DNA of 64,000 bases from Clostridiales bacterium (GTDB lineage: Bacteria; Bacillota; Clostridia; Christensenellales; CAG-138). The notes beneath the pieces were generated by a model. That model searched no databases. It saw nothing but the letters and a program-made list of their open reading frames with translations, and was not told the origin of the DNA. Below, one piece after another: positions 2,708-35,060 of this stretch. The stretch lies in NCBI GenBank assembly GCA_009779405.1, contig WREI01000004.1:1-64000 (forward strand), written 5' to 3'. The position numbers and the translations under genes are program-made. Position 1 is the stretch's first letter. The number at the start of each line of letters is the position of its first letter.

Positions 2708-4045
2708 ATGATAATCGACTACCCCCAGAAACAGCGCATAGGCTTCACATATGTATTGGATTTGCTTGCGCCCGCGTCCCCTTACGGGCGCGCGCTGTTG
2801 CGCAAGTTGCGCCCCTTTGCGCCGCGGGAGGTCGGGGCGCTGCAACGCGAGTTGGACGCTATCGAGGCCATACTGTCCCTCTCCCCTGCCTTGCTTGCGC
2901 AGATTGAAGAGCAGTTCGCGCAATTGCGGGATATACGCGGATCTCTTTCTCGTATAGGCGGGGCCTTGGATGAAGTGGATCTGTTTGAGATCAAATGCTA
3001 TCTGCTTATTTTGGACGCGCTTGGGCCCTTGTTTGCGCGCGCCGGATTTATCCTTGCGGAGACCCTGCCCGCTTTGGAGCTGCTCGACCCCGAGGGCAAC
3101 CGCGTCGCCAGCTTCGCCGTCAGTGAACGGTTCAGCCCTGCGCTGGCGGAGATTCGCGCCGAGAAACGGAATGCATTGCCCGACGCGCGCGCGGACATTA
3201 TCGAACGCGAACGGGCCGAGGAAGAACAAGTAATGGAGCGCCTGTCGGCAAAACTGCTGCCATGGAAAAATGCCCTCCAGCAAAACGCCGACAGCATAGC
3301 CCACATAGATCTGCGCATCCAAAAGGCCAAGCTCGCGCGGCAATATCACTGCGCCAAGCCTGCTATCGGCACCCATACCCTGCACTTTGCGGGCATGGTC
3401 AACCCGCAGATTGCAAACTTCACGCCCCTCCACATCTCCCTCGCGCCCGGCGCGACCGTGCTCACGGGTTATAACATGGGCGGCAAGAGCGTCACGCTGA
3501 AAACGCTGGCCCTCAATGTTCTGCTTATCCACTGCGGCTTCTATCCCTTCGCAGAGTCGGCAAGCTGTCCGCTCTTTGATCAGCTGTATCTGGTGTCGGA
3601 AGATTTGGAGGACGCAACCCGCAGTCTGTCGAGCTTTGGCGGCGAGGTGGTACGCCTGCGGGAGATTGCGGGCGGCGAGGGCTTTGCGCTCATCCTCCTG
3701 GACGAGCCCGCGCGGGGTACCAACCCCGCCGAGGGCGGCGCCATCGCGCGCGGCCTTTGCGCATACCTGAACGCGCAGAAAAATATCAGCGTGATCGCCA
3801 CGCACTATGAGGGCGTCGCGGCAAGGGCGAACGCGCATTACCGGGCGGCGGGCCTGCAAGATATCGATATAGAGACCCTGTGCAGGTTCCCCGAAGCGGA
3901 GCGCCCCGCGCAGATCGCCCGCCATATGGACTATGGCATAGCCCCCGTATCACCCGACCAGGCCCTCCCCGCCAACGCGCTGATGATCTGCCGCCTGCTG
4001 GGACTGGGCGAGGAACTGATGAGGTACATTATAAGCGAAACGTGA
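2708..4045 (+). CDS. kamC: KamC-like MutS-family ATPase
   Basis: This 445-residue protein has the C-terminal ATPase domain of MutS-type proteins: Walker A GYNMGGKSVTLK near residues 257-268 and Walker B ILLDEPARGTNPAEGG further on. It lacks the mismatch-recognition domain, and its helical first half resembles a core/lever region. MutS-like proteins beside KamB are a signature of lysine 5,6-aminomutase clusters and are thought to help exchange damaged cobalamin. The ATG at 2708 is preferred to the upstream ORF start because AAGAAAGG precedes it and the upstream codons are heptad-repeat DNA. It is 84 bp downstream of kamB and probably co-transcribed. Confidence 0.78.
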   Translation: MIIDYPQKQRIGFTYVLDLLAPASPYGRALLRKLRPFAPREVGALQRELDAIEAILSLSPALLAQIEEQFAQLRDIRGSLSRIGGALDEVDLFEIKCYLLILDALGPLFARAGFILAETLPALELLDPEGNRVASFAVSERFSPALAEIRAEKRNALPDARADIIERERAEEEQVMERLSAKLLPWKNALQQNADSIAHIDLRIQKAKLARQYHCAKPAIGTHTLHFAGMVNPQIANFTPLHISLAPGATVLTGYNMGGKSVTLKTLALNVLLIHCGFYPFAESASCPLFDQLYLVSEDLEDATRSLSSFGGEVVRLREIAGGEGFALILLDEPARGTNPAEGGAIARGLCAYLNAQKNISVIATHYEGVAARANAHYRAAGLQDIDIETLCRFPEAERPAQIARHMDYGIAPVSPDQALPANALMICRLLGLGEELMRYIISET

Positions 4046-21759: not shown

Positions 21760-22548
21760 TTATTTTGCGCCACTACGTCGCGCCAATTCCGTTGCGAAAA
21801 ACGTCGCCACATCTTCGGCGAACTTGCCGACGCCGAAGCCCGCGTCATAGCCCAGCTCCTTCGCCAGTTCGTGGCCGATGCGTGCGCCGCCGCAGATGAC
21901 GATATAGTTTTGCCGCTCACCCTCCGCTTCCAACAGCTCTATCAGCCCGGTCAGGTTTGAGATATGGATATCCTTTTGCGTCACGGTCTGCGAGACGAGG
22001 AGCACGTCCGCTTTCAATTCGCGCGCGCGGAGCAAGAGCTCCTCGTTCGGCACCTGACTGCCGAGGTTATGCGCTTCGATCATCTCATAGCGCTCCAGCC
22101 CGTAATGCCCCGCGAAGCCCTTGCGGTTCATGATCGCGTCGATGCCGACCGTGTGCGCGTCCGTACCCGTGCTCGCGCCCACGACGACGACCTTGCGGCC
22201 TATGTGCTCGCGGATATAGGCGTTGACGGCCTCCATATCCATGGTCTTCTCCTGCACGGTGACGACCTGTATGGCGTTATAATCCACGCTGTGCGCGACG
22301 CCGCCATAGACGACATAGAAGGTGAAGCTGCTGTCGAGCGGCGCGTGGTGGGCGACGTTCGGGTCGGCTATGCCCATCTTGCGCGCCAGCTGTTTAGCCG
22401 CTTCCGCGCCGCGCTCATCGTCCGCGACGGGCAAAGTGAAACTAAGCTGCACTTTGCCGTCGTTCATCGTGTCGCCATAGGGGCGCAGTTTGCTTAAATC
22501 CAGCAAGGTATCGAAGGCGGTTTTGTTCAGATTATAGTTCCCGCTCAT
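21760..22548 (-). CDS. kamE: Lysine 5,6-aminomutase beta subunit
   Basis: The 262-residue cobalamin-binding subunit matches the usual length. The Rossmann B12-binding domain carries TDAHTVGIDAIMNRKG: His132 is the expected lower axial cobalt ligand and Lys143, eleven residues later, the lysine that forms the Schiff base with PLP. That is the same spacing as His133/Lys144 in the characterised enzyme. DVLLVSQTVTQKD follows as in the family. With KamD it migrates the amino group of beta-lysine or D-lysine from C6 to C5. The start overlaps the kamD stop by 4 bp. It is the last gene of the lysine operon. Confidence 0.93.
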   Translation of the reverse strand: MSGNYNLNKTAFDTLLDLSKLRPYGDTMNDGKVQLSFTLPVADDERGAEAAKQLARKMGIADPNVAHHAPLDSSFTFYVVYGGVAHSVDYNAIQVVTVQEKTMDMEAVNAYIREHIGRKVVVVGASTGTDAHTVGIDAIMNRKGFAGHYGLERYEMIEAHNLGSQVPNEELLLRARELKADVLLVSQTVTQKDIHISNLTGLIELLEAEGERQNYIVICGGARIGHELAKELGYDAGFGVGKFAEDVATFFATELARRSGAK

Positions 22549-24104
22549 TGGGCAACGCCTCCTTTCATGAGGTCAACAAACGGATTGCGGTATTGCGGTG
22601 CTTTGCGCACCACGCCCGACAGCCCCTTACCGCCGTCGCGGGGGCGCTTGATATCGGCGAACACGCCCGCTTCCAGCGCCGCGAACAGCCCGCGCCGTTC
22701 AATCTCGGCCAGCAGAGCCGCCGCCTTCTCCAACACTTCTGCGGCGCGCACCTGTACCCTGCCGCCCTCGCGGAAGCTGATTTCCTCGCCCAAGTGGCGC
22801 ATCGTGCGCTCGATATAGCGCGCGTTCTCAATGGCCAGCGCGCGGTCGGAGAGAAAGGGCGTATGCACGGCCTCGGTCAGCATACCCAGCAGGTGTATCT
22901 TCTGCCCCGTGAGCACGGTCACCGCGTTAAACAGCGCGTCCTGCACATGCCCGCGGAAGATATTGCCCGTCATAAACTTGGTCGGCGGCATATATTTCAG
23001 CGGCGCATCGGGGAAAATCTCCCGCGCCATCTGCGCCTGCGCCAGCTCCATCAGAAAACCGTCCTCGACGTCCGGATCTATCTCAAACGCATGCCCCAGA
23101 CCCTGCTGCTGTGGGGCCAGCCCTGCAAGCAACGCAAACTGCTCGTTCAGGAACTGCGAGGCCAGCACGGTATGCGCTTCCTCCACGGCGTCGGCGGTCG
23201 TCAGATAATTGTCCTCGCCCGTGTTGATGATCACGCCCGCGAAGGAGTTGATCACCCGCGAAAAATACTGGTCGATGATCGTGCGCTGCATATTGATATC
23301 GCGGAAGAGTATGCCGTAGAGCGCGTCGTTCAGCATCATATCCAAGCGCTCGAGCGCGCCCATCGCGGCGATCTCGGGCATGCAGAGCCCCGAGCAATAG
23401 TTGCAAAGGCGTATATAGCGCTTCTCCTGCGCGCCCACCTCGTCCAGCGCGGCGCGCATCAGGCGGAAATTCTCCTGCGTGGCATAGGTGCCGCCGAAAC
23501 CCTCGGTCGTCGCGCCATATGGTACATAGTCCAATAAACTTTGCCCCGTCGTGCGGATCACGGCGATCACGTCCGCGCCCTGCACCGCCGCGGCTCGTGC
23601 CTGTATGATGTCCTGATATATATCGCCCGTCGCGACGATGACATAGATATACGGCGCGTCCTTGTCGCCGTATTCGGCGAGACAGGCGCGTCGCGCGGCG
23701 GCGTTTGCGCGTATGCGCTCCGCCGTTTCCCTTGCTATGTTTGCGGCGGCGGCGTGGGCGGTCTCCACATCGCGAATCTCCACGCGGGACAGGTCTAAGC
23801 GCCCCGCGGCGAGTTCCTCAGCGATCTGCTGTGGGGTCAGACCCGTTTCTATCATCGCCGCGCCCAATAGCAGGGCCGTGCCCATGGGCAGCAGGCCCTT
23901 CTCGTGCAGATGTTCCACCACCACATTGGGCAGCGGCACCTCGAACGCGTTCACGCCGTCCACGCCCAACAGACGGCAGACGGCCCGCTCCACGGTGACG
24001 GTCGTATGCCGGTCGATAAAGCTTTGCGTATCGGCGGCGACCCGGGCGGCGCTTTGGCGGGCCTTGTTTACTGTGTTTTGGTTTAGGTTTAGTTTGGTTA
24101 ACAT
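22545..24104 (-). CDS. kamD: Lysine 5,6-aminomutase alpha subunit
   Basis: The 519-residue protein matches the length of characterised KamD (about 516). It forms the TIM-barrel part that binds PLP phosphate, adenosyl and substrate. Features seen include YVPYGATTEGFGGTYATQENFRLMR, CNYCSGLCMPEIA and FNAVTVLTGQKIHLLGMLTEA. It acts with KamE in B12- and PLP-dependent radical amino-group migration. Its start lies 6 bp after the stop of a short HicB-like remnant and about 250 bp from kamA. Confidence 0.93.
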   Translation of the reverse strand: MLTKLNLNQNTVNKARQSAARVAADTQSFIDRHTTVTVERAVCRLLGVDGVNAFEVPLPNVVVEHLHEKGLLPMGTALLLGAAMIETGLTPQQIAEELAAGRLDLSRVEIRDVETAHAAAANIARETAERIRANAAARRACLAEYGDKDAPYIYVIVATGDIYQDIIQARAAAVQGADVIAVIRTTGQSLLDYVPYGATTEGFGGTYATQENFRLMRAALDEVGAQEKRYIRLCNYCSGLCMPEIAAMGALERLDMMLNDALYGILFRDINMQRTIIDQYFSRVINSFAGVIINTGEDNYLTTADAVEEAHTVLASQFLNEQFALLAGLAPQQQGLGHAFEIDPDVEDGFLMELAQAQMAREIFPDAPLKYMPPTKFMTGNIFRGHVQDALFNAVTVLTGQKIHLLGMLTEAVHTPFLSDRALAIENARYIERTMRHLGEEISFREGGRVQVRAAEVLEKAAALLAEIERRGLFAALEAGVFADIKRPRDGGKGLSGVVRKAPQYRNPFVDLMKGGVAQ

Positions 24105-24269: not shown

Positions 24270-24371
24270 AGGGCGCGATATATCGCGCCCCTACGAATCT
24301 GAGCGTTCATTTGTAGGGACATCCCTTGCAAATTCTCGCAACAGCGTCGCGAGAATTCATTTGCCCCTACG
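24270..24371. repeat. Two adjacent GTAGGGG-family palindromes at the kamA 3' end
   Basis: The first copy is the compact palindrome GGGCGCGATATATCGCGCCC followed by CTACG (24271-24294). The second runs from TGTAGGGAC (24312) to GCCCCTACG (24371), with an inner hairpin of AATTCTCGC and GCGAGAATT. The second copy overlaps the last codons of kamA, so the C-terminal RRGK is encoded by repeat DNA. Confidence 0.65.
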
Positions 24372-25592
24372 TTTCCGCACCAAATCCTCAGGCTCCAGCG
24401 CCAGCTGCTGTCCGGCCAGCAGACCCGCCACGCCAAGGGCGGGTTTGTTGTGTCTGCCGCCGCAGGCATCGCAGTCACAGCTTTCCGCATATGCTTCCGG
24501 TTCCGTATAGGCCGCGATCACGCCCTCGAAATTGCGAAGGACGACGCGCTTGCCGCCCTGCGAAATCAGATAATTGGGCATCACGGGGATCTTGCCGCCG
24601 CCGCCGGGCGCGTCCACCACAAAGGTCGGTACGCAGAAGCCCGAGGTATGCCCGCGCAAGCCCTCGATGATCTCAATCCCCTTCGCGACGGGCGTGCGGA
24701 AATGCTCCAGCCCCCGCGCGAGGTCGCACTGATAAATGTAATAGGGCCGCACGCGCATCTTCACCAGTTCGTGCACCAATTTGCGCATCACGTGCACACA
24801 GTCGTTCACGCCCGCCAGCAGGACGCTCTGGTTGCCCAGCGGTATGCCCGCGTCGGCCAGCATGGCGCAGGCGTGCGCCGCCTCGGGCGTGATCTCACAG
24901 GGGTGGTTGAAATGCGTGTTCAGCCAAACGGGGTGGTATTTTTTCAGCATACTGCAGAGTTCGGGCGTCACGCGCTGGGGCATCACCACGGGTATGCGCG
25001 AGCCGATCCGAACGATCTCCACGTGCGGAATCTCGCGCAGGCGCTGCAAGATACTCTCCAGCCTGCTGTCGCTGAGCGTCAGCACATCCCCGCCCGAGAG
25101 CAGCACGTCCCGCACCTCGGGATGCTGCTTTATGTATTCTATCTGCTGATCCAATATCGCCGCGGGCGTGGTGCTGTCCGTGGCCCCCGCAAAGCGGCGG
25201 CGCGTGCAGTGGCGGCAATACATGGCGCACTGGTCGGTGACCAGCATCAGCACGCGGTCGGGATAGCGGTGGGTCAGGCGCGGCGCGGGCGCGTCCCCGT
25301 CCTCATGCAGCGGATCGGCCAAATCGTGCGCCGCCACATCCAATTCGCGCGCCGTGGGGATTGCCTGCTTGCGCACCGGATCGTTCGGATTCTCCAAATC
25401 AATCAGGGACAGATAATAGGGCGTGATAGCCATACGCAGGCTCTGCAAACACTGTGCCACGCCTAATTCCTCGGCAGGGGAGAGCTGCACATAGCGTTTC
25501 AACTCCGCCAAAGCTTCGACGCGGTGCGTCAGCTGCCACTTCCAGTCGTTCCATTGGGATTCCGGGATGTCGGTGAAGATTGTTCGGTTCAT
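24357..25592 (-). CDS. kamA: L-lysine 2,3-aminomutase
   Basis: The 411-residue radical SAM/PLP enzyme is close to the 416 residues of the clostridial enzyme. The cluster motif is CAMYCRHCTRRRFAG (CxxxCxxC), with DVLLSGGDVLTLSD and the PLP-region VPTFVVDAPGGGGKIPVMPNY also present. A C-terminal Cys cluster (CDCDACGG) may help hold the dimer or bind zinc. It converts L-lysine to L-beta-lysine, the first step of the pathway. The ATG at 25592 is chosen because AAAGGAGCC precedes it. The upstream 18 codons lie in a palindromic repeat. Confidence 0.95.
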   Translation of the reverse strand: MNRTIFTDIPESQWNDWKWQLTHRVEALAELKRYVQLSPAEELGVAQCLQSLRMAITPYYLSLIDLENPNDPVRKQAIPTARELDVAAHDLADPLHEDGDAPAPRLTHRYPDRVLMLVTDQCAMYCRHCTRRRFAGATDSTTPAAILDQQIEYIKQHPEVRDVLLSGGDVLTLSDSRLESILQRLREIPHVEIVRIGSRIPVVMPQRVTPELCSMLKKYHPVWLNTHFNHPCEITPEAAHACAMLADAGIPLGNQSVLLAGVNDCVHVMRKLVHELVKMRVRPYYIYQCDLARGLEHFRTPVAKGIEIIEGLRGHTSGFCVPTFVVDAPGGGGKIPVMPNYLISQGGKRVVLRNFEGVIAAYTEPEAYAESCDCDACGGRHNKPALGVAGLLAGQQLALEPEDLVRKRRGK

Positions 25593-25614
25593 AGGTGGCT
25601 CCTTTATTGAATTC

Positions 25615-25710
25615 GTAGGGGCGCAATACATTGCGCCCTGTAACACATTAAATCTGCCCCATCCGGTGCAGTTCTGATTCCACCAGGGCGCGATATATCG
25701 CGCCCCTACA
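25615..25710. repeat. GTAGGGG-family inverted-repeat element between kdd and kamA
   Basis: The 96-bp element begins GTAGGGGCGCAATACATTGC and ends GCGATATATCGCGCCCCTAC, each end being itself a small palindrome. It sits 3 bp after the kdd stop and fills most of the kdd-kamA gap. In the transcript it would fold into two or three hairpins. Confidence 0.65.
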
Positions 25711-26770: not shown

Positions 26771-27319
26771 GTTAAGAGTTAATAGTGAAGAGTGAAGAGT
26801 TTTGGTTGAAATGCCGTTGGCATTTCTTATCATTGTATTTCTTCACTTCCGCGTGCGATTGTCTTTGTTGCGGAGTTCAGCATTTTAAGCAATTCTTCGC
26901 AATCACCCCATATGGATTCATATTCTTTTTTTGCCAAATATCCCGTCTCATAAAGTAACTCAATCCAATATAGCGTTTCGGCACATTCTTTCAGTGCAAT
27001 ACGAAGCTTACTGTGAAAGTCCTTGCGGCTGATAGCATAGCTGCTTTCCGCAGCGTTCGCGCCAATGCTTGTTCCGCTTCGCAACAACTGCTTGGAAAGC
27101 ACATACTCCTTCTTTTCCTCACAGAGAAATCTATACAAATTCACGATTCTCACAGCGAATCGTTTGCTCTTATATTTTACTGTTTTCTCATCAATCATCA
27201 TCGCTTACTCCTAATCTTTATCGCGTTAAGAGTGAATAGTTGTAGTAGAAATTCCTTCTAATATTATATGGGGAATCGCTTGCGATTCCTACCGCAACTC
27301 TTAACTCTTCACTCTTAAC
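26771..27319. mobile_element. Heptad-repeat element carrying a four-helix-bundle gene, inside the lysine operon
   Basis: The left arm has units GTTAAGA, GTTAATA, GTGAAGA, GTGAAGA (26771-26798). A direct copy of the arm (GTTAAGA, GTGAATA) recurs at 27225-27238. An inverted arm (AACTCTT, AACTCTT, CACTCTT) lies at 27296-27316. Small palindromic cores are present: GAAATGCCGTTGGCATTTC next to the left arm and GGGAATCGCTTGCGATTCC next to the right arm. The gene at 26830-27201 fills the interior. The whole fits between the kdd start and the kce stop. No target duplication is evident. Confidence 0.6.
26830..27201 (-). CDS. Four-helix-bundle protein, 23S rRNA intervening-sequence (IVP/S23) family
   Basis: The 123-residue protein is strongly helical and matches the small four-helix-bundle family (23S_rRNA_IVP, also related to the Avd accessory protein of diversity-generating retroelements). 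Landmarks are FAVRIVNLYRFLCEEKKEY, LLRSGTSIGANAAES, KDFHSKLRIALKECAETLYW and a C-terminal helix. Its paralogue lies at 54891-55262. The start follows TAGGAGT. It is lower in GC than the lysine genes on both sides and lies within heptad arms. It is probably cargo or an effector of the repeat element. Its biochemical role is unknown. Confidence 0.85.
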   Translation of the reverse strand: MMIDEKTVKYKSKRFAVRIVNLYRFLCEEKKEYVLSKQLLRSGTSIGANAAESSYAISRKDFHSKLRIALKECAETLYWIELLYETGYLAKKEYESIWGDCEELLKMLNSATKTIARGSEEIQ

Positions 27320-27326
27320 CCTACGC

Positions 27327-28142
27327 TCACATCCCCAAAATCTCCCGCGCTTCTGCCGGGGTCGCAATCCCGCGCCCCAGCTCCTTTGCGATTCGAACGG
27401 CCTTGGCGACCAGCTCGCCGTTGCTCTTGGCCAGTACGCCCTTCTCCAAATAGATGTTATCCTCAAAGCCCACGCGCACGTGCCCGCCCATCAGGATGGC
27501 CATGGTCGCCATGGGGAATTGCGCGCGGCCCACGCCCGCCGCCGTCCAAGTGCTGTTTGGCGGTATGCTGCCCGCCATAAACACGAGGTCGCGCGGCGTT
27601 GCCGCGATGCCGCCGTTCACGCCCATCACAAAATCAAAGTGCATGGGATCGGCGATATAGCCCCTGCGGTGCAGGCGCAGAGCCATATCGATCATGCCCT
27701 TGTCGAAGACCTCCAGCTCGGGCTTGATACCCCGCGCTGTCATCTTCCGGGCAAACTCAATGATCGTATTTTCGGTGTTGACGAAAATATCGTCCCCGCC
27801 GAAATTGCAGGTGCCGCAGTCCAGGGTCGCCATCTCCGGGTTCAATGTGATGGGCTGCAAGCGCTCTTCGTTGCTCATACCCACGGCCCCGCCCGTGCTC
27901 GTCTGGATAATCACATCCGGGCAAACTTCGCGAATCGCGGCAATGCACGCGGCAAAGCGCGCCGCGCTCTGGGTGGGCGTGCCGTCGTCCTCGCGCACAT
28001 GCAAGTGTATAATCGCCGCGCCCGCGTCAACGGCGCTCTTGGCTTCCCGCGCAATCTCGGCCACCGTATACGGCACCGCCGGGTTGTGTTCCTTCGTGAC
28101 TTCCGCCCCGCAAATGCAGGCGGTGATGATGAGTTTTTCCAT
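27327..28142 (-). CDS. kce: 3-keto-5-aminohexanoate cleavage enzyme
   Basis: The 271-residue TIM-barrel zinc enzyme belongs to the BKACE family. Visible landmarks are the start MEKLIITACICGAEVTKEHNP, the metal-binding GAAIIHLHVRE (HxH), ITLNPEMATLDCGTCNFG and GGHVRVGFEDNIYL. It condenses 5-amino-3-oxohexanoate with acetyl-CoA to give acetoacetate and 3-aminobutyryl-CoA. The ATG at 28142 follows AAAGGAG. A heptad element lies immediately upstream and another begins 7 bp after the stop. Confidence 0.94.
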   Translation of the reverse strand: MEKLIITACICGAEVTKEHNPAVPYTVAEIAREAKSAVDAGAAIIHLHVREDDGTPTQSAARFAACIAAIREVCPDVIIQTSTGGAVGMSNEERLQPITLNPEMATLDCGTCNFGGDDIFVNTENTIIEFARKMTARGIKPELEVFDKGMIDMALRLHRRGYIADPMHFDFVMGVNGGIAATPRDLVFMAGSIPPNSTWTAAGVGRAQFPMATMAILMGGHVRVGFEDNIYLEKGVLAKSNGELVAKAVRIAKELGRGIATPAEAREILGM

Positions 28143-28160: not shown

Positions 28161-28250
28161 GAGGAAGGTGGAAAGAGGAAAGGGGAAAGTTAAGGCATTT
28201 CCATGTTCCCTGCCCACTCTATCTTTCCTCTTTCATCTTTCCACTTTCCT
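28161..28250. repeat. Heptad-repeat element, GAGGAAA family, between kal and kce
   Basis: The left arm reads GAGGAAG, GTGGAAA, GAGGAAA, GGGGAAA. The right arm reads ATCTTTC, CTCTTTC, ATCTTTC, CACTTTC, i.e. the inverted word. The core is about 32 bp without a gene. The right arm overlaps the kal 3' end: the last residues (KVER) and the TGA stop of kal are heptad DNA. Confidence 0.75.
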
Positions 28251-28622
28251 CTGCTTTGCTTTCGGCACCACACAAGTCCCACTTGCCCGGCATACGACAA
28301 TCGGTTCCGCCAGTACATCGCAGGCGGAGTCGCTGATGTCCGGGCGCGGGGCGATCACTTTACGCGCCTCGAAAATCATTTTGCGGGACGTGTTGCCGAT
28401 TTCGATGATCTCGCCCGTCGCTTCGATGTAGTCCCCCGCATAGACGGGCGCGAGGAATTCGACCATATCATAGGCGCGGAACAGGCCCTCGTCGCCGTCG
28501 TGGCGAATGAGGAGCTCGGTCGCGACGTCCCCGAACAGTGCGAGCATGCGCGCCCCGTCCACCAGATTCCCGCCGTAATGCGCGTCGTGCGCGCTCATGC
28601 GCAGGCGTATGGTTGCTTGCAT
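28233..28622 (-). CDS. kal: 3-aminobutyryl-CoA ammonia-lyase
   Basis: The 129-residue hotdog-fold protein is similar in length to known Kal. It begins [27 protein letters not shown], with [22 protein letters not shown] in the middle. It eliminates ammonia from 3-aminobutyryl-CoA to give crotonyl-CoA. The ATG at 28622 follows GGAGGT and is preferred to the 86-codon extension, which is the riboswitch leader. It is the first gene of the lysine operon. Its C-terminal tail is encoded by a heptad repeat arm. Confidence 0.9.
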
Positions 28623-28641
28623 AATGTTACCTCCGTAAAAT

Positions 28642-28679
28642 AATAAAAACGCGCCATTCGGAAACATTCCAAATAGCGC
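28642..28679 (-). terminator. Intrinsic terminator of the lysine riboswitch
   Basis: On the minus strand GCGCTATTTGGAA and TTCCGAATGGCGC form a 13-bp stem (two G-T wobbles) with a TGT loop, followed by GTTTTTATT. It ends 7 nt before the kal ribosome binding site. Its 5' strand includes CTATTT, which is also the 3' strand of riboswitch helix P1, so the two helices exclude each other. Confidence 0.85.
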
Positions 28680-28830
28680 AATGCGATTTTCGCATACAGT
28701 GACGGCGCACTGAGCCCCGCCCCCAAGGCAAGGCGCAGGGCAATGCCACCTCCCTTTCGGCGACGAACACATTCCGCGCAATGCCTGCCCGCATAATGCC
28801 GCGCGTACCTTGCCCCTCGCTCCTCTATTT
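28671..28830 (-). promoter_or_regulatory. Lysine riboswitch (L-box), predicted ON switch for lysine catabolism
   Basis: The leader read on the minus strand begins AAATAGAGGAGCGAGGGGCA and continues AGGTACGC. This follows the conserved L-box start seen before Bacillus lysC (ATAGAGGTGCGAACTTCAAGAGTA). Further conserved parts follow in order: GTCGCCGAAAGGG, a hairpin from AAGGGAGG and CCTTGCCTT (P3), GGGCG...CGCC (P4), GTCACTG, and ATGCGA-AAA-TCGCAT (P5). The final CTATTT pairs with AAATAG to close P1. Because CTATTT is also needed by the terminator, lysine binding should stop termination and turn the operon on. Family membership is by eye and not by covariance search. Confidence 0.8.
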
Positions 28831-28851
28831 TTGTATTTGATTGTGTAACCT

Positions 28852-28880
28852 ATTTTAGTTTTTTGTATTGCGTTTGTCAA
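28852..28880 (-). promoter_or_regulatory. Strong sigma-A promoter of the lysine operon
   Basis: On the minus strand a perfect TTGACA (28875-28880), a 17-bp spacer and TAAAAT (28852-28857) lie just upstream of the riboswitch. Transcription should start near 28845, giving a leader of about 220 nt before kal. Confidence 0.82.
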
Positions 28881-32655: not shown

Positions 32656-33948
32656 TTAATGCGGTTCTGTACCAAACGCCGACACCACCCGCACATAGCG
32701 CCGCAGCGCGTATTCGCCGTCGTGCGCTTCGCCTTCGATCAGCTGTGACATATCCGCGCCCTGCGCCACGCGCAAGACACCCGCGCGCCACAGGGTTTGC
32801 GTCAGCGCCGCCCGCTCCGCTTCGGCGCAGAGCAGGCCCGCCGTTTGCAAATGGCCCTTGCGCGGTTTCAGGGTCTCCAAAATCTTGGCGCGGGGCAGCC
32901 GCTTCACAGCACAGTTTCCGTAGGGGATCGAAGCTTCCAAGGCGTCGTCCTCACAGGCCAGCAGGGCGTGTTGCGCACCTGTGAATACGCGGCAGGGTTT
33001 GCGGCAGGCTTGCAGGGTCTGCGTATAGGTCAACAGCCCCGTCTGCGCCCGTATGGCGAGGGGGAGCTCCTCCCCACTCTCGCGGCGGCACTGTTCGAGG
33101 ATAGGCAGAAAGCGTTTGCAGAACACGTAGATTTCGTCCATCGAATCGGTATTCAAATAGATCACCTGACAGGAACTGCAGAGCAGCTGGTTGGTTCGCA
33201 CGATATGCGCCGCCAGGGCTATAAGCAGCTCGTCCCGCATGCCATCGGTCGTGATATAGGCAAAGCTGCATTTGTGGCCCCACTCGATCAGCTTTGTGTT
33301 CGGCTTTGCCATGCGCCGCAGGGCCGAAACGGCGGCGTCCCCGCCCCAGACGACGACTGCATCCGCGCTATCGACCAAGGTCTGCATGGCCGTCTCGTCC
33401 TGAGAGCTGTAATCGAAGAGATAGATATACTCTGCAAGACGGGGCTCGATGCGCAGGAGCTCGAGCAGTATCATCGCCGTCAGTCCGTCGTCCCCGCCCG
33501 GCACTTTTACGATATTGATGTTCCCCGTTAAAAGCCCTTCGATGATACTGTAAAAAGCCAGCCCGTATTGGTTGCCCGCGGCGATATGCAGGAGCACGCC
33601 CAAGGGCATGCGCGTTTCGCGTATATGTAAGCCCTCCGTCTCGCGGCATTCGCCGGAAGGGAGCCCGACCAGTTCTTTTTCCACGCGTTTGCGCAGGGCG
33701 TCCCGCTGCAGCAGGGCCTTGGCTTCTTGCAAATAGATGCACGCCATATCCTCCGAAATGCCCAACTGCGCCAGCAGCGGGATATGTTGTTCGCCAACGC
33801 TGTCCGCCAAAGCCTGGCAGGCGTCCCATACGATTTCCGGGGGCAGCGGCTCTTTGCGCAGGGTTTCCAAGAGCATCCCGCCCAGCGCGTCCAGTACGGC
33901 GTCGCGTTCCTGCGCGGATAATACCAATTTGCCGTGGATCAGATTCAT
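32656..33948 (-). CDS. luxC: LuxC-type acyl-CoA reductase
   Basis: The 430-residue protein belongs to the LuxC family of fatty-acid reductases. Seen are HIAAGNQYGLAFYSIIEGLLTGNINIVKVPGGD (nucleotide and acyl region), the catalytic Cys in NQLLCSSCQVIYL and IEWGHKCSFAYI. LuxC reduces an acyl group delivered by LuxE to the aldehyde with NADPH. The start overlaps the luxE stop (ATGA). No luciferase (luxAB) or acyl-ACP thioesterase (luxD) gene is present, so light emission is not expected. The aldehyde may feed a lipid or surface metabolite. Confidence 0.85.
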   Translation of the reverse strand: MNLIHGKLVLSAQERDAVLDALGGMLLETLRKEPLPPEIVWDACQALADSVGEQHIPLLAQLGISEDMACIYLQEAKALLQRDALRKRVEKELVGLPSGECRETEGLHIRETRMPLGVLLHIAAGNQYGLAFYSIIEGLLTGNINIVKVPGGDDGLTAMILLELLRIEPRLAEYIYLFDYSSQDETAMQTLVDSADAVVVWGGDAAVSALRRMAKPNTKLIEWGHKCSFAYITTDGMRDELLIALAAHIVRTNQLLCSSCQVIYLNTDSMDEIYVFCKRFLPILEQCRRESGEELPLAIRAQTGLLTYTQTLQACRKPCRVFTGAQHALLACEDDALEASIPYGNCAVKRLPRAKILETLKPRKGHLQTAGLLCAEAERAALTQTLWRAGVLRVAQGADMSQLIEGEAHDGEYALRRYVRVVSAFGTEPH

Positions 33949-35060
33949 AGGCCCTCCAATATGCGGCCCGCGCCCGCCGCGCAGGTCTGGATGCCCGATA
34001 GGCCCGCCCGGCCCAGAATCTCAAACCAGGGCGCGGGGTTGCCGCAGGGGCAGCTTTGCCCTTCGTGCAGGATGGCGAGGTCGTCGGTCATAATGCTGAC
34101 TAAGGGCATGGATTTCAGAATCGGCGTGAGCAGGTTCAGCAGGCCCGGCTCGCCATAGCCCACGGGTTCCATCGTTCGGACGTCGCGGATTAGGACACGG
34201 CTGTAGATCGGCACATGGAAATGGTGGTGGATGCAGTCGAAATAGGGTACATTGTGCTCCACCACGCCGAAGAATTCGCGGAAGCGCGTGTCGGGTATGC
34301 CCAGATGCGCCTCCGCCAGGCGGTATAATTCCGTCTTCTCCACCCGTTGCGCCGCGAACTGTTTCCAGCCGCCGCCGAGGAAGACCATGGAGCCACGCGG
34401 CAGGGTCAGCTTTACGTTTTCCTGTTCCAGCTTTTGCAGCAGGAAGTAGAAATAGGCCGGAAAGCCTATGATGCGCACGGGCGCAGAGCTGTGGCTGTAG
34501 CGCAACAGCGCGCGCGATACGCCCTCGATATTCAGCTCGTAGGCCCCGCCCCGATCCGCCAGCGCATACTCCCTGTGCAGCGCAGGCGCGAGGAAGGTCG
34601 CGGCGTGCGCGGTGCGCACCGCGCCCATCTTGTTGTGCTTGGCGGGCTGATAGCCCAGGATCAGATAGTTCGCGGGGCGCAGGGAGAGCAATTCGTGGCG
34701 CCGCAACAGGCGCCAGAGCATCGTTGCACCCATGCCGAGCGCGCCCACGTCAAAGCCCACCGCCACGGGCTTGCCCGAGGTGCCGGAGCTTGTGGATTGC
34801 AGGCGCAATTTCTTCGGCGGGATGGAAAGCAGCGCGCCCTGCTTCAAATAGAGCGTGGGAATGGGCGGCAGGCGGCCCAAATCCGCGTAGCTTTGCAGTG
34901 TATCGGGATGGAAGCCCCGGCAGTCGAGTATTTCTCTATACTCTTTACAGTTTGCATAGTGCCAAGACGCGTTCTCCCGAATCGCGCGCAGAAACAGCAC
35001 GTCCGTGCCGCCGTGGTCGTAAACCTGACTGTGGCGGAACAGTTTTTTGACGGTGTTCAT
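33945..35060 (-). CDS. luxE: LuxE-type acyl-protein synthetase
   Basis: The 371-residue protein belongs to the ANL-related LuxE family. The phosphate-binding motif is STSSGTSGKPVAVGFD, with FFGVVEHNVPYFDC and a C-terminal MTDDLAILHEGQSCPCGNPAPWFEILGR. It activates a fatty acid with ATP and holds it as a thioester for LuxC. It is the middle gene of a three-gene operon with a GNAT enzyme upstream and luxC downstream. The tight coupling with luxC supports a working reductase complex. The acyl substrate is unknown. Confidence 0.85.
   Translation of the reverse strand: MNTVKKLFRHSQVYDHGGTDVLFLRAIRENASWHYANCKEYREILDCRGFHPDTLQSYADLGRLPPIPTLYLKQGALLSIPPKKLRLQSTSSGTSGKPVAVGFDVGALGMGATMLWRLLRRHELLSLRPANYLILGYQPAKHNKMGAVRTAHAATFLAPALHREYALADRGGAYELNIEGVSRALLRYSHSSAPVRIIGFPAYFYFLLQKLEQENVKLTLPRGSMVFLGGGWKQFAAQRVEKTELYRLAEAHLGIPDTRFREFFGVVEHNVPYFDCIHHHFHVPIYSRVLIRDVRTMEPVGYGEPGLLNLLTPILKSMPLVSIMTDDLAILHEGQSCPCGNPAPWFEILGRAGLSGIQTCAAGAGRILEGL

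What the first reader, a model, noticed from the sequence alone, without database searches (positions are those of the whole stretch)
28642..28880. Lysine riboswitch arranged as an ON switch for lysine degradation
Seen: a strong promoter, an L-box-like leader with conserved segments in the right order, and a terminator whose 5' strand contains the P1 3' strand (CTATTT). Known: L-boxes before biosynthetic and transport genes usually turn expression off with lysine; I recall comparative work noting L-boxes before lysine catabolic genes in a few species. Inferred: here lysine stabilises P1, blocks the terminator and induces kal-kce-kdd-kamA-kamDE. No antiterminator helix is needed, so the switch would be very compact.
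Basis: partly seen in the sequence, partly recalled or inferred. Interest (0 to 1): 0.82.

Follow-up and report, generated by a model that had tools for sequence, protein, structure and literature searches.

The report
Lysine-ON riboswitch for lysine fermentation
An uncultured gut-type Clostridia genome carries an RNA lysine sensor placed so that lysine should switch on its own fermentation genes; the arrangement was already predicted in other bacteria, but close relatives carry a doubled version of the switch that seems undescribed.

Summary
RF00168 matches 28835..28666 (-), 52.8 bits against a gathering score of 30, between a near-consensus promoter and the kal start codon. The 3' strand of P1 (CTATTT) lies inside the 5' arm of a strong terminator, so the lysine-bound aptamer and the terminator exclude each other: an ON switch. 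Downstream are kal, kce, a four-helix-bundle gene, kdd, kamA, kamD and kamE, the lysine-to-butyrate fermentation set. The same overlap occurs in 57 of 61 kal leaders of the GTDB family, but in 2 of 37 L-boxes before other genes (lysA, lysC, dapA and transporters among those examined). The kind is already described: ON L-boxes with this logic and L-boxes before kal/kce are in the literature, as predictions. I found no experimental test.

The unexpected part lies in relatives. In 27 of 82 kal leaders (0.2 expected by shuffling) a second copy of the strand that closes the aptamer follows the first terminator, and in 22 it starts a second terminator. One aptamer then faces two terminators. A distant family has the same design before kdd. 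The window has the simple single form. How the doubled form works is unknown; I found no description of it.

The parts
28852..28880 (-). promoter: -35 TTGACA (28880-28875), 17-nt spacer, -10 TAAAAT (28857-28852); start of transcription expected near 28845
   Evidence: consensus scan, 11 of 12; the start site is inferred
28666..28835 (-). lysine riboswitch aptamer (L-box, RF00168)
   Evidence: cmscan 52.8 bits, gathering score 30
28825..28830 (-). P1 5' strand AAATAG
   Evidence: RF00168 alignment, coordinates
28671..28676 (-). P1 3' strand CTATTT, shared with the terminator 5' arm
28681..28696 (-). P5 hairpin TATGCGAAAATCGCAT; its conserved C-G pair appears replaced by A-U
   Evidence: pair replacement read from the sequence
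28785..28790 (-). L2 loop GGGCAG, complementary to L3 (kissing loops, 6 bp with one G-U)
   Evidence: sequence; loop placement, coordinates
28738..28743 (-). L3 loop TTGCCC
   Evidence: sequence
28651..28679 (-). intrinsic terminator hairpin, 11-bp core stem, dG -17.7 kcal/mol
28637..28650 (-). U-rich tract of the terminator (GTTTTTATTATTTT)
28626..28636 (-). ribosome binding site ACGGAGGTAAC, outside the terminator stem
   Evidence: sequence
28233..28622 (-). kal, 3-aminobutyryl-CoA ammonia lyase
   Evidence: NF052388 203 bits, cut-off 160
27327..28142 (-). kce, 3-keto-5-aminohexanoate cleavage enzyme
   Evidence: NF052387 456 bits, cut-off 382
26830..27201 (-). four-helix-bundle / 23S rRNA IVP-like protein inside the operon
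   Evidence: TIGR02436, PF05635
25713..26753 (-). kdd, 3,5-diaminohexanoate dehydrogenase
   Evidence: NF052381 262 bits, cut-off 200
24357..25646 (-). kamA, lysine 2,3-aminomutase (ORF limits; probable start at 25592)
   Evidence: TIGR03820 610 bits, cut-off 525
22545..24104 (-). kamD, lysine 5,6-aminomutase alpha subunit
   Evidence: NF052384 896 bits, cut-off 600
21760..22548 (-). kamE, lysine 5,6-aminomutase beta subunit
   Evidence: NF052385 393 bits, cut-off 280

Best explanation
The element is a lysine riboswitch that works as a transcriptional ON switch for the lysine fermentation operon. Without lysine, the segment GCGCTATTTGG pairs with CCGAATGGCGC just downstream and transcription ends about 20-30 nt before the kal start codon. 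With lysine, the five-helix aptamer closes and P1 (AAATAG/CTATTT) is held long enough to keep CTATTT out of the terminator; the polymerase passes the U tract and kal-kce-(IVP)-kdd-kamA-kamD-kamE is made. P1 is itself the antiterminator; no further helix is needed. Shown by computation: aptamer identity, overlap of P1 and terminator, its conservation, gene identities. Inferred: lysine binding, direction of the response, start site, operon-wide read-through, and that the choice is kinetic (the terminator fold is 12 kcal/mol better than the P1 fold before any ligand energy).
For: RF00168 hit. Promoter, terminator and ribosome binding site in order. Mutually exclusive strands; terminator fold -84.5 against P1 fold -72.4 kcal/mol. 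61 of 68 kal genes of the family that pass the family cut-off have an L-box 43-302 nt upstream. P1 3' strand lies in a terminator 5' arm in 57/61 kal leaders but 2/37 other L-boxes, Fisher p 1e-19, not corrected for relatedness. P1 3' strand varies in step with P1 5' strand, 256 of 282 pairs, best of 2000 shuffles 248. Where checked, the 37 other L-boxes precede biosynthesis or transport genes: lysA, lysC, dapA, an NhaC-type antiporter and an amino-acid binding protein confirmed by HMM. Operon identity. The window's nearest kal relatives L142, L155 and L159 also have the L-box and the same overlap by inspection.
Against: No measurement of lysine binding or of termination exists here. The aptamer score is one of the lowest in the family. 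P1 has only six pairs, one of them G-C, so holding the terminator off may be inefficient. The operon contains a foreign-looking IVP gene, so read-through to kamE is not proven.
Confidence: 0.88

Rival explanations
1. Ordinary OFF switch: lysine promotes termination, as in lysC leaders, through an antiterminator not recognised here.
For: Most studied L-boxes are OFF switches; OFF is the rule for biosynthesis and transport genes (PMC11477304).
Against: The P1 3' strand is itself the terminator 5' arm, so a closed aptamer removes the terminator. The arrangement is shared by 57/61 kal leaders and nearly absent from other L-boxes. Repressing lysine degradation by lysine makes no physiological sense.
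Confidence: 0.04
2. Decayed riboswitch: the aptamer no longer binds lysine and the terminator works as a constitutive attenuator.
For: Low covariance score (52.8 bits) compared with most relatives.
Against: Differs at only 2 of 26 highly conserved columns, both in P5 where pairing is kept; kissing-loop complementarity and P1 kept.
Confidence: 0.06
3. Control of translation rather than transcription: the hairpin hides the ribosome binding site.
For: The hairpin lies close to the ribosome binding site.
Against: GGAGG follows the U tract and is outside the stem; the U tract immediately after the stem is the hallmark of an intrinsic terminator and is present in nearly all relatives.
Confidence: 0.02

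Closest known systems
Predicted ON lysine riboswitches, attributed to Rodionov et al. 2003 by Barrick and Breaker 2007 (PMC2258182)
   Same: Ligand binding buries part of the terminator stem in an alternative pairing; no separate antiterminator; the paper names lysine beside adenine and glycine ON switches.
   Different: Only the organism; the original 2003 paper is not in the library, so its examples were not compared.
L-boxes before kal/kce in Clostridium sticklandii, Fusobacterium nucleatum and Thermoanaerobacter (Mukherjee et al. 2017, PMC5584792)
   Same: Same aptamer family, same first gene or genes, same proposed sign (positive).
   Different: Here one operon carries the set kal, kce, kdd, kamA, kamD, kamE with an IVP gene inserted; different lineage.
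B. subtilis lysC / E. coli lysC L-boxes
   Same: Aptamer family.
   Different: OFF logic and biosynthetic gene, as described in PMC11477304 and PMC5584792.
Adenine pbuE-type and glycine gcvT-type ON switches
   Same: Works like them: P1 competes directly with the terminator (own knowledge; PMC2258182 groups them).
   Different: Different aptamer and ligand; resemblance of mechanism only.
Partially tandem T-boxes (mentioned as of unknown mode of action in PMC7583486)
   Same: Loose parallel to the doubled leaders found in relatives: part of a switch is duplicated.
   Different: tRNA-binding family, unrelated aptamer; details not compared.

Membership tests
Lysine riboswitch (RF00168) | covariance-model score above the gathering threshold over the whole model | tested here: met
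   52.8 against 30 bits, positions 1-182
Lysine riboswitch (RF00168) | conserved junction (AGAGG, GCCGA, CTG, G.GCT) and L2-L3 kissing loops | tested here: met
   24 of 26 columns at least 95% conserved are kept, the two changes lie in P5 with pairing kept; GGGCAG/TTGCCC in the loops
Lysine riboswitch (RF00168) | selective binding of lysine | not testable with these tools
   needs in-line probing or SHAPE
Transcriptional ON riboswitch (P1-terminator competition) | P1 3' strand inside the 5' arm of an intrinsic terminator | tested here: met
   6 of 6 P1 nt paired in the terminator; 57/61 kal leaders against 2/37 others
Transcriptional ON riboswitch (P1-terminator competition) | ligand raises read-through | not testable with these tools
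   single-round transcription needed
Lysine fermentation operon (kal-kce-kdd-kamADE) | equivalog-level matches for each enzyme | tested here: met
   NF052388, NF052387, NF052381, TIGR03820, NF052384, NF052385 all above cut-off

The most novel reading that the evidence does not exclude
The window's switch is the simple form of a group in which many relatives use one lysine aptamer with two closing strands and two terminators. After the first terminator a second copy of [P5 3' strand - J5/1 - P1 3' strand] appears and, in most, starts a second terminator. The aptamer can in principle be closed by either copy; closed by copy 2, it would hold the first terminator hairpin inside P5. The same aptamer would thus be read twice during one transcription run, lowering leak and demanding that lysine be present at both decisions. 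Support: 27 of 82 kal leaders against 0.2 expected; copy 2 pairs with the leader's own P5 5' strand at 4-5 of 5 positions, with two-sided changes (C-G, G-C at one position; A-U, G-C at another); a distant family has the same design before kdd. Not excluded: T2 is an unregulated extra terminator left by duplication, or the first terminator's freed 3' arm acts as antiterminator for the second.
Probability: 0.5. Interest if true: 0.68.

Novelty: new member of a known kind. Interest (0 to 1): 0.45.

Why it matters
Natural lysine-ON switches have been predicted since 2003, but I found no experimental test in the library. This locus gives a very compact one (terminator directly on P1) with a clear physiological target, and the family supplies about 60 natural variants with a built-in control group of L-boxes before biosynthesis and transport genes. 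The doubled leaders of relatives would, if functional, be a way to read one aptamer twice; none of the tandem architectures shown in Figure 1 of a 2022 survey (PMC9481103) is of this kind.

Tried and rejected
OFF-switch reading: rejected because P1 and terminator share a strand. Translational reading: rejected because the ribosome binding site is free. Picking only the most stable terminator per leader understated the overlap (50/61), because some leaders have a second terminator; testing all terminators gave 57/61. A motif search for doubled closing strands in 399 genomes of the phylum found three hits, of which one (L223) is a real L-box and the other two matched only by sequence and were not pursued; 297 genomes of the order gave nine, seven of them kal leaders of the window's own family. 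A regular expression for kal L-boxes missed several true ones that Rfam found (L142, L155, L154, L196, L197, L209, L220), so 'none' labels in the tree are partly wrong. That tree has few columns and cannot count origins of the doubled form (11 changes, only 2 forced). Energies of the alternative doubled states do not favour one order of events. Rodionov 2003 is not held in the library and is cited second-hand. No L-box was found near kal in the Bacteroidales, Lutibacter, Spirochaetes and Marinitoga loci scanned with Rfam, nor in 27 of the 29 best phylum-wide kal loci.

Full report
CHECK OF THE OBSERVATION. On the - strand, RF00168 matches 28835..28666 over its whole length with 52.8 bits (gathering score 30; E 5.5e-11 for the window). 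It is the only L-box of the 2.5 Mb assembly. A promoter TTGACA-17-TAAAAT lies at 28880..28852. The hairpin GCGCTATTTGG-AATGTTT-CCGAATGGCGC (28679..28651, -17.7 kcal/mol) is followed by GTTTTTATTATTTT, then ACGGAGGTAAC and the kal ATG at 28622. P1 is AAATAG (28830..28825) with CTATTT (28676..28671); all six 3' nucleotides are paired in the terminator.

IS THE APTAMER INTACT? The score is among the lowest in the family. Among 26 columns at least 95% conserved in 92 family aptamers, the window departs at two. Both are in P5; reading the sequence, a C-G pair has become A-U, so pairing is kept. In the RF00168 alignment the L2 loop holds GGGCAG and the L3 loop TTGCCC, so the long-range loop contact is possible. 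I take it as functional in all likelihood.

THE GENES. kal (NF052388), kce (NF052387), a four-helix-bundle/IVP gene (TIGR02436), kdd (NF052381), kamA (TIGR03820), kamD (NF052384), kamE (NF052385), all on the - strand, the enzymes above their curated cut-offs. This is the known lysine fermentation pathway to butyrate and acetate.

MECHANISM. Folding the transcript up to the U tract gives -84.5 kcal/mol with the terminator and -72.4 with P1 forced. The apo default is termination, and lysine must act while RNA is being made. Since the P1 3' strand is the terminator's 5' arm, any closed aptamer is antiterminating: an ON switch. The ribosome binding site is not hidden.

COMPARATIVE TEST. In 101 genomes of the same GTDB family, RF00168 was found in 78 and kal above its cut-off in 68; 61 of those 68 kal genes have an L-box 43-302 nt upstream. 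Contig lengths suggest that this family includes MAGs deposited as 'Christensenella sp.' or 'Clostridia bacterium' (inference). Asking whether any terminator uses at least four nucleotides of the P1 3' strand in its 5' arm gave 57 of 61 kal leaders against 2 of 37 other L-boxes (Fisher p 1e-19, relatedness not corrected). Of the other L-boxes, five representatives were identified by HMM as lysA, lysC, dapA, an NhaC-type antiporter and an amino-acid binding protein; the remaining ORFs look alike by eye where readable. In 47 distinct combinations of P1 5' strand, P1 3' strand and terminator partner, P1 is paired in 256 of 282 cells (best of 2000 re-dealings 248). The terminator is paired in 245, but that number is inflated because hairpins were selected for pairing. 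Outside the family, L-boxes before kal occur in one other family of the phylum sample (L080, L076) and in named genomes such as Clostridium ihumii, C. senegalense, C. cadaveris, Eubacterium ramulus, Dethiosulfatibacter aminovorans and a Mycoplasmatota strain. In some Clostridium leaders the hairpin on P1 lacks a clear U tract and a separate terminator follows, so their logic may differ.

WHAT IS ALREADY KNOWN. PMC2258182 states that certain lysine riboswitches with ON logic bury pieces of terminator stems on ligand binding, citing Rodionov 2003. PMC5584792 reports L-boxes before kal/kce in C. sticklandii, F. nucleatum and Thermoanaerobacter, 'positively regulated'. My searches of the held library found no experiment on such a switch; the library lacks most subscription journals.

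THE UNEXPECTED PART. In many relatives the first terminator is followed by a second copy of the aptamer's closing strand. Example, G020:C73: copy 1 GATGG|AGAG|CTATTG, terminator 1, then copy 2 GATGG|AGCG|CTATTG, which starts terminator 2. With a strict definition (J5/1 motif, at least 4 of 5 pairs with the leader's own P5 5' strand, at least 4 P1 pairs) 27 of 82 kal leaders have copy 2; 300 dinucleotide shuffles gave a mean of 0.19 and a maximum of 2. By a hairpin scan 22 of the 27 have a second terminator; several of one genus (g21) and one other have lost it or nearly so. P5 5' strands TCATC, TCGTC, TCATG and TCATT meet copy-2 strands GATGG/GGTGG, GACGG (once GATGA), CATGA/CGTGA (or AATGA/AATGG, 4 of 5) and GATGA: two-sided changes at two positions. 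Part of this agreement could be inherited from copy 1 at duplication. For two genomes (G082, G078) Infernal itself closed the aptamer with copy 2, giving hits of 224 and 230 nt with terminator 1 inside P5. A motif search found the design in a distant family: L223 has two L-boxes (78.7 and 87.5 bits), the second with two closing strands (TATGA|TGCG|CTATTC, then TATGA|AGCG|CTATTC), before a kdd-like gene identified by eye.

HOW THE DOUBLED FORM MIGHT WORK. (a) The aptamer is closed again by copy 2 while copy 1 sits in hairpin 1, so lysine is checked twice. (b) When copy 1 is held by lysine, the freed 3' arm of terminator 1 pairs with copy 2 and blocks terminator 2; the pairing is 7-11 bp in some leaders (g21, L147, L149, L192, L217) but only about 5 bp of the CTAT segment in others (genus g14). 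(c) Terminator 2 is an unregulated relic. Conservation of the P5 3' part in copy 2 argues for (a) over (c), but energies do not settle it. The tandem architectures shown in PMC9481103 do not include one aptamer with two expression platforms made in this way; partially tandem T-boxes are a loose parallel.

VERDICT. Observation confirmed, interpretation supported, known kind. The added value is the clean within-family contrast and the doubled leaders of relatives.

Noticed in passing
G020:C73, G086:C25, G089:C23, G013:C43, G034:C5, G052:C46, G074:C9, G064:C11, G036:C6, G040:C155, L144, L146, L147, L149, L151, L192, L213, L217 and others: Doubled closing strand (P5 3' strand + J5/1 + P1 3' strand), in most followed by a second terminator, after a single lysine aptamer upstream of kal.
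   Followed up: partly
L223 1230-1412 and 1493-1674: Two lysine riboswitches in a row before a kdd-like gene; the second one also has a doubled closing strand.
   Followed up: partly
L153 2638-2812 and 3409-3584; L154 (Eubacterium ramulus) 2614-2788 and 3444-3620: Two L-boxes in one lysine-fermentation locus, one before kal and one just after it.
   Followed up: no
window 26830-27201 (-): A four-helix-bundle / 23S rRNA intervening-sequence-type protein gene sits inside the lysine fermentation operon between kce and kdd.
   Followed up: no
L152, L161, L164, L171, L180: Clostridium kal leaders: the hairpin that uses the P1 3' strand lacks a clear U tract and a separate terminator follows, so the switching logic may differ.
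   Followed up: no
window 32656-35060 (-): Two adjacent ORFs that look by eye like an acyl-CoA reductase (LuxC-like) and an acyl-protein synthetase (LuxE-like) pair.
   Followed up: no
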